In this document: positions 11,439 to 16,257 of the stretch, piece after piece
Layout: each line of letters opens with the position of its first letter
How positions within the stretch are numbered: position 1 is the first letter of the stretch
Assembly: GCA_026874595.1 (NCBI GenBank)
Contig: CM049310.1
Location: 78,113,056 to 78,177,055, forward strand
Source of the DNA: Sipunculus nudus
Lineage: Eukaryota; Annelida; Sipuncula; Golfingiida; Sipunculidae
Reading direction: 5' to 3'
DNA length: 64,000 nucleotides
Notes under the pieces: model-generated
Database searches by the model: none
Seen by the model: the letters and a program-made list of their open reading frames with translations, nothing else
Told to the model about the DNA's origin: nothing
Position numbers and translations under genes: made by a program

Positions 11439-12652
11439 TGTCAGAGACGAGATTGAAATCCAGGCGGATTTTAAATTCGCCTAGGCGAGATTGCGATTGT
11501 GATCTCGCCTAGGCGAGATTGCAATTGTGATCTCGGCTAGACGGATTTTAAACTCGCCTAGACGAGATCACAATCGCAATCTCGCCTAGGCGAGATTAAA
11601 ATCCATCATGGAGCAGGCCAGGATTTTAATCTCGCCTAGGCGAGTTTAAAATCCGTCTGGTGTCATCCAGGCGAGTTTAAAATCTGCCTGATATTACTTA
11701 GGCGAGTTTAAAATCTGCCTAGGCGAGATTAAAATAGTGATCTGATCTAATTTCCTAATATATTAAGCATTGTAATTGACATATGAAAGATGTTTTCAGT
11801 CAGATTTTCAATATTTAACACTGAATGGTTGTATATAGTTAAAAGGTAATATTTTTTATTAATATTTACAGAATATTATAGTATTGATGTTATAATTTAC
11901 TTTTTTACAGTAATGTAATAATTATTCATGTGATAATTAACATTAATTTTTGAAACACGAATTATGAAATAGATATTTGATTATTATTTGCACCTTTGAT
12001 GTGTTTCATGTGGTCTACAGCATCCTTATCATACCAATTATTTGCTATACATTAATTAATCTTTATTTTTTTTTCCAATTTTCTTAACAACCTTGTGATT
12101 GTAAATATCACTAATAATTTTTACAAAAAAATAATTTGTAATTGTATTTAAATATATGGCAATTAGAGAGTAACAAGAGGTATATTGAAGCACACTTATG
12201 AGATATTATGAAGAGCAAATCTGGGGGAAAAAGTCATCCACTTGCATATTGAATCAATCATAGATAGATAGATATACAGATAGATAGATTAGTCTAGATA
12301 GCTATTACTTCACTATTTAATGAGTATATTACACATTAACATAAACAATCATCCTATTTGATAATTCTTACAGGACAAACAGAACAAATTAGTTGGTTGA
12401 TCTAGTTCAAATGTTTCTTTTCACCCAGGTATTCAACACTCAACAGTCAAAACATGTACACTTATGGTACAAAATATGCAGGGTATCAGTATTTATGATA
12501 GACTTTGATACACCATCCTTTTTTTTTTTGGTAATTAAACATCATATGAGAAAAGGTAAAAGTTGATACACAGATGTACGCATGTGAATATTTCTTTGTC
12601 TTATTTAGTCTTTTCTTATAATGTATATAATATTCTTCTGATCTTTTTTTAG

Positions 12653-14100
12653 CTCAGCTGACTATAAGTCATCTGAGCTATAGTCGTGGTCCATTGTCCG
12701 TCGTCCGTCCGTCTGTCCGTCCGTCCGTCCGTCCGTCCGTAGATGTGGCACGTTTTGAAACCGTAAGACCTAGGAATCCAAAATTCAGCATAATGTTAGA
12801 TGTCCCCAAGATCTCCTACCAAGCCGAAAACTGGGTCTTTGCGACTTCGTTCCTTTGAGAAATTAAGGAAAAACCTCAATTTTTTATTAAAAACCTATTT
12901 TCACACTTCAGGACTGCCTAATATCAAAACCACTCATCTGTTTTCCCTCATATTTACCATAAATATTCTTCTGTATAGTTCCTATGTACATGCCAGAAAT
13001 TATGTCTGTATTATATAATTTAAAAAAGTTATGGGCCCAAACATAATGCATTTTGTAAAAAATCAGGAAAGATATTTGATCACTTAACACAAAACTTGTT
13101 AAAGCTATGGACTTTTTTTTCCAGTAATATAACTTTAATTTATCAAAATTAAATTGTATACCCAAAATTATATCAAAATCTTTTAAATTTTTTAAAATAT
13201 TAACAAAAATAAAAAATTATTACCTTAAATTTTGCCCAACTTTGACCATGGCACGTTTTTTTACTGTAAGTACTGTGGATTTAATTTTCTCAGCATGTTT
13301 TTGTTAGCATTTTGTCTGTTAACACCAAAAATTTGAAACCAGTTGATCAAAAGCTGTAGATTTTATTCAAGTTTTCAAGCACCATGTAATAAATTGTTTA
13401 CATCAAGCTAGTGTTATGCAGTTTGCAAGAGCTCAGCTCCCCAGCTTCAGCTCTCAGTTCCTAAAATTTGGCATACAATTAGATGTCTCCAAAATTCCCT
13501 ACCATGCCAAGAATTTGGTCACTAGGACTTAATACCTTCGAGATATTAATGAAAAACTTCATTTTTCCATTAAAAACCCATTGTTACACTTCAAGACTGC
13601 CTAATATCAAAACCACTGATGTGACTTTAATCATATATAATATACATATTTTTCTGTACATTCTCTATGCATATGCCAGAAATGATGTCAGTATTGCGTA
13701 ATTGTTTTAAATTATGGGCCCAAACATAATGCACTATGTAAAAAATCAAGAAATATATTTACTCCCTTAACAAGGGGATTGCTGAAGCTAGAGTTTTTTT
13801 GCCAGGGATGTAACATTATTTAATCAAGATTCAATTGAGTACCCCAAATTAGTCCTGAATTTTTCAAATTTAATATGTTATTAGTATAAATATAAAATTA
13901 GTACCTTAAATTTTGCCCAACTTTGACCATGGCACATTTGTTTCCTGTGAGCACGGTTGATATAATTTTCATATCATGCACACAAGGATTTCAGCTTTTT
14001 AGTTTAGAAAGCTGAAAGAAATTGGCCAAAAATTGTAGCTTTTATTAATGTTTTTATGAGACCATGTCAGACCTTAACTCTCTCCAGCCCCTCTTGAGTC
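12653..14100 (+). repeat. Dispersed repeat with CCGTCC leader and ~683-bp internal duplication
   Basis: Begins with a small palindrome (AGCTCAGCTGACTATAAGTC...TGAGCT) and a (CCGT)n run, then two diverged copies of the same body about 683 bp apart. Both copies contain CTGCCTAATATCAAAACCAC and GGGCCCAAACATAATGCA. The similar 72-codon ORFs at 12800 and 13483 are the same part of each copy and are degraded, so I treat them as non-coding. Confidence 0.7.
12696..12740. repeat. (CCGT)n simple repeat
   Basis: Near-continuous GTCCGTCC repeat forming the leader of the dispersed repeat. Confidence 0.9.
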
Positions 14101-15661
14101 ACCTGTATGTTGACCTTGTTGAACTTTCAGCAAATTATGCATGCTTGAGGCGAGCCATACACTGTTGCAGGTAGGCAGCTTATGGCCAGCCACAGTTGAT
14201 CCAGGTGTCCAACCCAACTCATCTAGTAGTTTTAACCAACAACATAACAATTAACAATAAATTAATAAATTTTTATTGTATTTTAATAACAAATTAAAGA
14301 AAAATAAAGAAGAATTTGTTAGTTTATAATAACAGGAAATCAACTTGCAGTTACTGATGATAAAAGAATCTTGTATCGATGGATAGAATGTCACGTACTC
14401 CAAATAACACCATGCAGGCACCTATGGTATTTTTCAGTTCAGTTTTAATGATAAAAAAGTAAATCATATTATTCATTACTAATCATTAGGGATCATATGA
14501 AGGAAATTAATGATAGACAAAGATGCAGTTGATATTATTAATCTAGATTCCTACTGTGTCTAGTGTGTACATTGATGTGAAATTAGTCCAAAATGAATAT
14601 ATTACATTTTTTTTTTTTTAATAAATAAAAGCCATAAAACCAGGTACTTTTGATCATAATTTAAATGTGTGAATTTTGTATATTCTGGATTCTCAACATA
14701 ATTGTTTGGTGAAAACTGAATAAATGCCAGTAATGGTGGGAAAACTTTGCAAATGTATTTAAATACGAATATGAATATGTACTCCATTATAAAATGTCTT
14801 GCATAAAGAATTGGAATTCAGGTAAAAATGAAAGTATATGAATACCAGTGCAAATACTTTCAAAATGTATTCATGAATGCATTCATGAATGTATTCTTTA
14901 ATATTATTTTAATAATCATTTCAGTTATATTTCATTTTAAAAAATCATAAGATTCTCTTATTATTTTTAATAAAAATTATATTTGGGACTATTTGTAATT
15001 TTTTTAAAATAAATAGTTAAACTTTTATATCATATGATCTGCTTATAAGTTATATGGCCAAGTCAAAATCTGTGTGCCAATAGTACTCCAATTGTTAATA
15101 AAATAAATGAAATCAATCCTCTTCCCTGTCTCCAAAGATAATATCATAATCATACATAAGCTAAACACCAACAACTCATAATAAAGCTTATATTTATTAC
15201 CACACCAAACCAGCATATGCCTCATTCCTAAATCATATTTTTTAATCATATATAACAGCTGAGCGCCGTGACCCATAGGTCCCTTGTTCAATGTTTTGTG
15301 AGGCATTATGTGAAGCTTCAATATTTATGTAGACTGTGTTACAAGATAACTGCCTTTTTTTGTATTATATCATATCAGAAAAAATATGATTTCTAGTTTC
15401 ATAGAGTAATAGATCATTTATGCATGTGAACATGCATTGAATTATATTGATAAAAAATAAATGAGCTATGTTCCTTTTGTCTTTTTAAAATACTACATTA
15501 CTAATATTACTAATACCAGTTTCCCTTCAAATTAATATTGACAACAAAATTATTATGTAAATAATCAGCACCAGCCCACATCATATATCATTTGAATATG
15601 CCATATACAATACCAATGTAAGTTTCTTATTACCTAGTTTATAAATAAAAATATTAAATAA

Positions 15662-15880
15662 AAAAATTAATGTTAATTATTACATAAATATTATAATATT
15701 CTGTAAATATTATTAAATATATATTACTTGTGAACTATACATAACCATATTAATAAAAAATATATAATATAAAATATTCCATTTCCAAAATTAATGTTAA
15801 TTATTACATTAATAATATAATATTCTGTAAATATTAATAAACATATTACTTGTGAACTATACATAACCATTCAGTGTTAA
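15662..15880. repeat. ~120-bp local tandem duplication inside right TIR arm
   Basis: The block from TTAATGTTAATTATTACAT to GTGAACTATACATAACCAT occurs twice in succession. Only the second copy corresponds to the left arm of the element. Confidence 0.7.
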
Positions 15881-16257
15881 AATATTGAAAATCTGACTGA
15901 AAACATCTTTCATAAGTCAATTACAATGCATAATTTATTGGGAAATTAGATCAGATCACTATTTTAATCTCGCCTAGGCAGATTTTAAACTCGCCCAAGT
16001 GATATCAGGCAGATTTTAAACTCGCCTGGATGACACCAGACAGATTTTAAACTCGCCTAGGCGAGATCAAAATCCTGGCCTGCTCCATGATGGATTTTAA
16101 TCTCGCCTAGGCGAGATTGCGATTGTGATCTCGTCTAGGCGAGTTTAAAATCCGTCTAGGCGAGATCACAATTGCAATCTCGCCTAGGCGAGATCACAAT
16201 CGCAATCTCGTCTAGGCGAATTTAAAATCCGCCTGGATTTCAATCTCGTCTCTGACA

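What the first reader, a model, noticed from the sequence alone, without database searches (positions are those of the whole stretch)
11439..16257. 4.8-kb element whose long TIRs are arrays of a perfect 20-bp palindrome
The two arms are inverted, closely matched copies of ~500 bp starting TGTCAGAGACGAG. The outer parts are made of AATCTCGCCTAGGCGAGATT or near variants, each itself a perfect palindrome. So palindromes are nested within an inverted repeat that spans 4.8 kb. Repeated subterminal words often serve as transposase binding sites, and a transcript crossing both arms would fold into long dsRNA. It lies inside a 20-kb intron of a gene, and I know no named superfamily with these ends.
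Basis: partly seen in the sequence, partly recalled or inferred. Interest (0 to 1): 0.8.

Follow-up and report, generated by a model that had tools for sequence, protein, structure and literature searches.

The report
Foldback-like, Ginger2-type nonautonomous transposon family
This is one copy, enlarged by a later insertion, of a mobile DNA family with hundreds of copies in this genome; its long mirrored ends are packed with a repeated palindromic word, and its ends and insertion sites match the known Ginger2 transposon group.

Summary
The inverted arms are real: TGTCAGAGACGAG...CTCGTCTCTGACA at 11439-16257, about 465 bp, 95% identical. Each outer ~300 bp carries 13 AGRCGAG half-sites, partly paired into palindromes; the longer word AGRCGAGATT occurs 13 times in the arms, nowhere else in the window, and starts at the 7th base from each end. 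The mobile unit is not 4.8 kb: 15 of 19 complete copies fetched are 2.16-2.18 kb, and the window copy carries a 2637-bp nested, Helentron-like insertion. The genome holds 1014 ends within 3 mismatches, control 0. A 4-bp target duplication fits 40 of 42 element sites read, three insertions have paralogous empty sites, and the target is RTATAY-like. TGTNR ends, 4-bp duplications and RTATAY are published Ginger2 features. No transposase or autonomous partner was found, so Ginger2 membership rests on ends and target. Best reading: a young nonautonomous Ginger2-type element with foldback architecture, its arrays probably extra transposase-binding sites. New variant of a known kind. dsRNA, small RNAs and the intron claim were not tested.

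The parts
11439..11903 (+). left arm (long terminal inverted repeat), begins TGTCAGAGACGAG
   Evidence: 95% identical to the inverted right arm over 466 aligned columns; window 11439-11940 matches the 40 scored genome places at 97-100%
15793..16257 (-). right arm (long terminal inverted repeat), ends CTCGTCTCTGACA
11439..11743 (+). outer array of the left arm: 13 AGRCGAG half-sites (9 forward, 4 reverse); CpG observed/expected 1.32 in 11439-11740 against 0.55 outside the element
   Evidence: fold z = -17.4
15954..16257 (-). outer array of the right arm: 13 AGRCGAG half-sites (5 forward, 8 reverse); CpG observed/expected 1.24
11445..11454 (+). terminal half-site AGACGAGATT, starting at the 7th base of the element
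16242..16251 (-). terminal half-site of the right end, mirror of 11445-11454
11502..11519 (.). perfect 18-bp palindrome ATCTCGCCTAGGCGAGAT
11578..11597 (.). perfect 20-bp palindrome AATCTCGCCTAGGCGAGATT
11631..11644 (.). perfect 14-bp palindrome CTCGCCTAGGCGAG
16052..16065 (.). perfect 14-bp palindrome CTCGCCTAGGCGAG
16099..16118 (.). perfect 20-bp palindrome AATCTCGCCTAGGCGAGATT
16177..16194 (.). perfect 18-bp palindrome ATCTCGCCTAGGCGAGAT
11904..12649 (+). noncoding AT-rich interior shared by family copies, left part
   Evidence: aligns to the majority sequence of 15 copies
15287..15792 (+). noncoding AT-rich interior shared by family copies, right part
12650..15286 (.). nested insertion of 2637 bp absent from the family majority sequence; Helentron/HINE-like (hairpin near one end, GTCC-type microsatellite, unit repeated about 683 bp apart)
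   Evidence: HINE anatomy from passages of PMC7492417; the classification is inference
11350..11438 (.). left part of the TA-rich tract used as target
   Evidence: read; the TSD length of this copy is ambiguous (every even length 2-12 fits)
16258..16275 (.). right part of the (TA)n target

Best explanation
A nonautonomous cut-and-paste DNA transposon with Ginger2-type ends and target, mobilised in trans by a Ginger2-like transposase encoded elsewhere. Shown: sharp TGT...ACA ends, 4-bp duplication of a palindromic RTATAY-like target, empty sites for three insertions, hundreds of copies, no recognisable coding sequence in the window copy. Inferred: the transposase binds the half-site AGRCGAGATT just inside each terminus, and the arrays of inverted half-site pairs are extra binding sites (or sites for a dimeric protein) that make this element a strong competitor for the enzyme. 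The foldback shape would have arisen by duplication of the terminal binding region inside each arm. The window copy landed in a (TA)n tract and later received a Helentron-like insertion.
For: TGTCA fits TGTNR; published Ginger2 features are TGTNR termini, 4-bp TSD (5 bp in TDD-4/5) and an RTATAY target. A 4-bp TSD fits 22 of 23 and 18 of 19 element sites; the six-base site is RTATAY in 19 of those 22 and 15 of those 18 (counted; sites inside TA tracts fit trivially). Paralogous empty sites for 3 of 9 insertions whose flanks were joined and compared with the window and the loci then held. 508 exact 25-bp ends and 1014 within 3 mismatches, controls 0. Fifteen copies of 2157-2184 bp average 97.4% pairwise identity. 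No Pfam match in six frames of the window copy. The word AGRCGAGATT is at both termini and in the arrays and nowhere else in the window. The terminal 60 bp differ at 2 of 120 positions between subfamily majority sequences, against 61 of 919 in the interior, p = 0.026. A Ginger2-like transposase is tied to (AT/TA)n insertion in sesarmid crab nimaviruses (PMC10871703, passages).
Against: No Ginger2 transposase and no autonomous copy was found. Searches for copies with these ends or arms but another continuation gave 0, 0, 0 and 2 hits; the 2 are a copy broken off into other sequence with a reverse-transcriptase-like ORF (named from recall) and an indel variant, and by my estimate these patterns would pass only 18-56% of unrelated continuations. 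The arms (about 464 bp) exceed the TIR lengths in Table 2 of PMC2836005 (45-297 bp). Two of 42 sites do not fit a 4-bp TSD (L028 fits 6 only; L062/L063 fits 2 only), nor do the outer flanks of the L044 pair (TATA, TACA), not in that count. The arrays beyond the terminal 60 bp are not significantly better conserved between subfamilies than the interior (22 of 490 against 61 of 919, p = 0.12), and half-sites vary no less than other arm positions among the 15 copies (1.34% against 0.97%). AGRCGAG, the shorter half-site, also occurs 5 times outside the arms in the window.
Confidence: 0.72

Rival explanations
1. A foldback element of the Mutator (MULE) type that targets TA microsatellites, as MuTAnT does in Medicago.
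For: Long modular TIRs forming a foldback, and insertion in (TA)n, are described for MuTAnT (PMC4486113, passages); most foldback elements are thought to be Mutator (PMC4079207, passages).
Against: MuTAnT has 9-bp TSDs. Of lengths 1-12 no odd one fits any of the 42 element sites read, and 20 of the 40 sites with a 4-bp match fail at 6 bp. No Pfam match of any kind in the window copy.
Confidence: 0.05
2. A Tc1/mariner-type (TA duplication) element with unusually long TIRs.
For: A 2-bp match is present at 36 of 42 sites, and L062/L063 fits only 2 bp.
Against: Five of 42 sites match at 4 bp but not at 2 bp: L010 CATA, L027 TATC, the L043 pair CATA, L054 TACA, L068 GATA. The empty sites of L010 carry a single CATA.
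Confidence: 0.05
3. The palindromic arrays serve a host protein (a dimeric DNA-binding factor) or chromatin rather than the transposase, so that the element spreads regulatory sites, as EnSpmN6_DR carries p53 sites in zebrafish.
For: CpG observed/expected is 1.32 and 1.24 in the two arrays against 0.34 in the rest of the element and 0.55 outside it; zebrafish precedent PMC3485254 (abstract and passages). A derivative with only some 30 bp of its left arm still sits, as a tandem pair, inside a 4-bp duplication.
Against: CpG sites in the arrays do decay between copies (3.2-4.0% against 0.7-0.8% at other sites), so the CpG richness may only reflect youth. The array word also lies at the cleaved ends. 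No host factor was tested.
Confidence: 0.12
4. The arms are a local inverted duplication, not a transposon.
For: Only the inverted arms themselves.
Against: 1014 dispersed ends, shared boundaries, TSDs and empty sites.
Confidence: 0.01

Closest known systems
Ginger2/TDD DNA transposons (PMC2836005; abstract and passages, section 6)
   Same: TGTNR termini, 4-bp TSD in the metazoan members, RTATAY target, TIRs; a short nonautonomous form is listed (Ginger2-1N1_NV, 252 bp) and a mollusc member (Littorina saxatilis)
   Different: TIR about 464 bp against 45-297 bp in Table 2; arrays of palindromic half-sites (the word start 'palindrom' has 0 occurrences in that paper); no transposase found here
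Foldback elements such as Tetris, Galileo and MuTAnT (passages of PMC4079207, and of PMC4486113; Galileo abstract in the listing)
   Same: Long TIRs with internal repeats, nonautonomous copies, rearranged derivatives; internal TIR repeats of Galileo are said to hold extra transposase-binding sites (cited in PMC4079207)
   Different: TSDs of 8-10 bp (Tetris) and 9 bp (MuTAnT), assigned to Mutator; Galileo belongs to the P superfamily. Here 4 bp and an RTATAY target
Sesarmid nimaviruses with a Ginger2-like transposase (PMC10871703, passages)
   Same: Insertion into (AT/TA)n tracts, terminal inverted repeats
   Different: Whole viral genomes with a 46-bp TIR of another sequence and their own integrase-like gene

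Membership tests
Ginger2 | TGTNR termini (inverted at the other end) | tested here: met
   TGTCA...TGACA in the window and at the ends shown
Ginger2 | 4-bp target-site duplication (metazoan members) | tested here: met
   fits 40 of 42 element sites; empty sites for three insertions
Ginger2 | RTATAY target preference | tested here: met
   34 of the 40 sites with a 4-bp TSD are RTATAY (19 of 22; 15 of 18); many lie in TA tracts, where this is automatic
Ginger2 | transposase with H2C2 zinc finger and DDE domain, in the element or in a partner with the same ends | tested here: inconclusive
   none in the window copy; no ORF above 94 aa in three long copies; the genome has 6033 first-look H2C2 candidates, 150 scored, whose flanks were not read
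Ginger2 | TIR length in the published range, 45-297 bp in Table 2 (descriptive, not defining) | tested here: not met
   about 464 bp
Foldback (structural class) | very long TIRs built of internal repeats, able to fold back | tested here: met
Mutator/MULE | TSD of about 8-11 bp, typically 9 (range from recall; 9 bp) | tested here: not met
   4 bp fits 40 of 42 sites, 9 bp fits 0 of 42
Tc1/mariner | 2-bp TA duplication | tested here: not met
   5 of 42 sites match at 4 bp and not at 2 bp

The most novel reading that the evidence does not exclude
A Ginger2-type element that leaves the chromosome as a circle whose abutted ends are separated by 2 bp of flanking DNA. Patterns for end-to-end junctions with 0-24 and 0-30 bp between exact ends found the same four places in the genome, with spacers of 2 (CA), 2 (TA), 6 and 10 bp, and all four were read. 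In the C1 case (L043) the two copies are 787 of 791 identical and the pair lies inside one CATA duplication, as expected if a circle with a 2-bp spacer recombined into its resident copy; a second insertion beside the first with a 4-bp duplication does not readily give 2 bp. PMC2836005 calls the excision mechanism of Ginger1 unknown.
Probability: 0.12. Interest if true: 0.6.

Novelty: new variant of a known kind. Interest (0 to 1): 0.42.

Why it matters
It suggests that the foldback architecture, mostly described for Mutator-type elements, can also arise on Ginger2-type ends, whose transposases are kin to retroviral integrases. The many-fold repeated half-site makes it testable whether arrays of end-like palindromes attract transposase and so drive a nonautonomous family to hundreds of copies. 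Three strings from the ends and the palindrome occur in no paper of the library searched; I made no search of repeat databases, which are not on hand.

Tried and rejected
One scan of viral contigs with a degenerate arm motif gave 0. Rfam at gathering thresholds found one tRNA match in the window. Six-frame Pfam scans gave 0 families for the window copy and for one 600-bp stretch of an 8.1-kb copy. Long copies as autonomous candidates: L014, L015 and L023 have no stop-to-stop ORF above 94 aa. Of 12 probe stretches of 601 bp from six further long pairs, 10 matched the family at least in part and 2 (L032, L039) not at all; both of these matched dispersed repeats that also flank other copies. L009, the one of 20 fetched left arms without a right arm in the stretch, has retrotransposon ORFs nearby (L1-like by recall). 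Integrase_H2C2 search of the genome: 6033 first-look candidates, 150 scored; their flanks were not read, so it neither supports nor excludes a partner. Joined flanks: 3 of 9 insertions (L010, L017, L041) had paralogous empty sites in the window or loci held; for L017 and L041 some of these differ by substitutions inside the target; of the other six I looked up none elsewhere (one, L026, had a 71% match across the joint, not aligned). Divergence within the 15 copies: right outer array, non-CpG, 32 of 4005 against 307 of 18701 in the middle, p = 3e-5, but the middle holds T runs and the copies were chosen by left-arm similarity, so I give it little weight. One search stopped on a script error and was rerun. 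The host gene was not identified.

Sampling: TSD set 1 = the 19 of 20 fetched left-arm hits that had a right arm, plus the window copy, L041, L042 and the L043 pair (23). Set 2 = 19 of the 29 adjacent end pairs among the first 100 listed of 508 exact ends; 8 of the other 10 lie in set 1 loci and 2 were not read. L044, L045 and L084-L093 were not added to the TSD counts. The 15-copy alignment uses those of the 19 with 2.1-2.2 kb; the subfamily alignment uses 6 of the 10 loci.

Full report
What is there. The window element runs from 11439 (TGTCAGAGACGAG) to 16257 (CTCGTCTCTGACA). Its arms are inverted copies of about 465 bp, 95% identical. The outer ~300 bp of each arm hold 13 AGRCGAG half-sites, 9 and 4 in the two orientations on the left, 5 and 8 on the right; the longer word AGRCGAGATT occurs 13 times in the two arms together and not elsewhere in the 64-kb window, while the shorter AGRCGAG occurs 5 times outside the arms. 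Six perfect palindromes of 14-20 bp with the core CTCGCCTAGGCGAG lie in the arms. The left outer arm alone folds far better than shuffled sequence, z = -17.4.

The unit is 2.18 kb. The window's own genome (1.43 Gb, 153 contigs) could be searched. Of 20 left-arm matches fetched, 19 have a right arm facing them in the fetched stretch, and 15 of these are 2157-2184 bp long with mean pairwise identity 97.4%. The window copy aligns to their majority sequence with 2153 identities in 2177 aligned bases and one insertion of 2637 bp at about 12650-15286. Among 29 adjacent end pairs in the first 100 listed exact ends, 15 are 2.05-2.25 kb apart, 6 shorter and 8 longer. The family is large: 508 exact 25-bp ends, 1014 within 3 mismatches, none for the reversed pattern; two ends per copy would make about 500 copies. 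A second subfamily of about 1.9 kb is about 88% identical over most of its length.

How it inserted. A 4-bp duplication fits 22 of 23 element sites in one sample and 18 of 19 in another; 5 of the 42 match at 4 but not at 2 bp, and 20 of the 40 that match at 4 fail at 6 bp. The exceptions are L028 (6 bp) and L062/L063 (2 bp). Paralogous repeats without the element show one copy of the target where L010, L017 and L041 have two, 3 of 9 insertions tried. The target reads mostly TAT[A/G]-TATA-[T/C]ATA; 34 of 40 sites are RTATAY, many of them in TA tracts.

What it is. Published Ginger2 elements have TGTNR ends, 4-bp duplications and an RTATAY target (PMC2836005, abstract and passages, section 6). 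All three were tested here and met. A Ginger2-like transposase has also been tied to insertion in (AT/TA)n tracts in crab nimaviruses (PMC10871703, passages). The window copy has no recognisable coding sequence and no autonomous partner was found, so the classification rests on ends and target. Mutator, thought to be the home of most foldback elements (PMC4079207, passages), does not fit the duplication length.

How it probably works. Shown: insertion with 4-bp duplications and conserved ends. Inferred: a Ginger2-like enzyme made elsewhere recognises the half-site that starts at the 7th base of each end, and the arrays multiply that site. For this speak the identity of the terminal and array words and the better conservation of the terminal 60 bp between subfamilies (2 of 120 against 61 of 919, p = 0.026). 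Against it: the arrays beyond 60 bp are not significantly better conserved than the interior (22 of 490, p = 0.12); half-sites vary no less than other arm positions among the 15 copies; and the 0.79-kb derivative in L043 keeps only some 30 bp of its left arm, yet its tandem pair is bounded by a 4-bp duplication, so a full array at both ends is probably not essential.

A possible circle. Four end-to-end junctions with up to 30 bp between exact ends were found. Two have 2-bp spacers. In L043 the two copies are 787 of 791 identical inside one CATA duplication. In L044 the second copy is a 144-bp remnant and the outer flanks differ (TATA, TACA), which does not speak for the idea. The other two (L045, L024) have TA-repeat spacers of 6 and 10 bp and fit neighbouring insertions. 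This is too little to claim a circular intermediate, but it can be tested.

Not tested: dsRNA or small RNAs, the intron, other species (the tool states that it holds no relatives of this genome), repeat databases.

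Noticed in passing
12650-15286: Nested insertion with a hairpin (GCTCAGCTGACTATAAGTCATCTGAGC) near one end, a GTCC-type microsatellite and a unit repeated about 683 bp apart (77-78% alike); resembles HINE/Helentron elements described in oyster.
   Followed up: partly
L043 (G000:C1:76776900-76778610): Tandem pair of a 0.79-kb derivative, 787 of 791 identical, 2-bp CA between the copies, one CATA duplication outside.
   Followed up: partly
L044 (G000:C7:12540900-12545800): Two family copies, 2092 and 144 bp, end to end with a TA spacer; outer flanks TATA and TACA.
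   Followed up: partly
window 7209-7272: tRNA match on the minus strand, possibly a SINE head.
   Followed up: no
window 51285-51562: Copy of a dispersed repeat that is an empty-site paralogue of the L010 insertion.
   Followed up: yes
window 4470-5337: GRCGAGWT in reverse orientation recurs at 148-bp steps (4470, 4618, 4766, 4914, 5062): apparently a tandem repeat of about 148 bp, not compared further with the arms.
   Followed up: no
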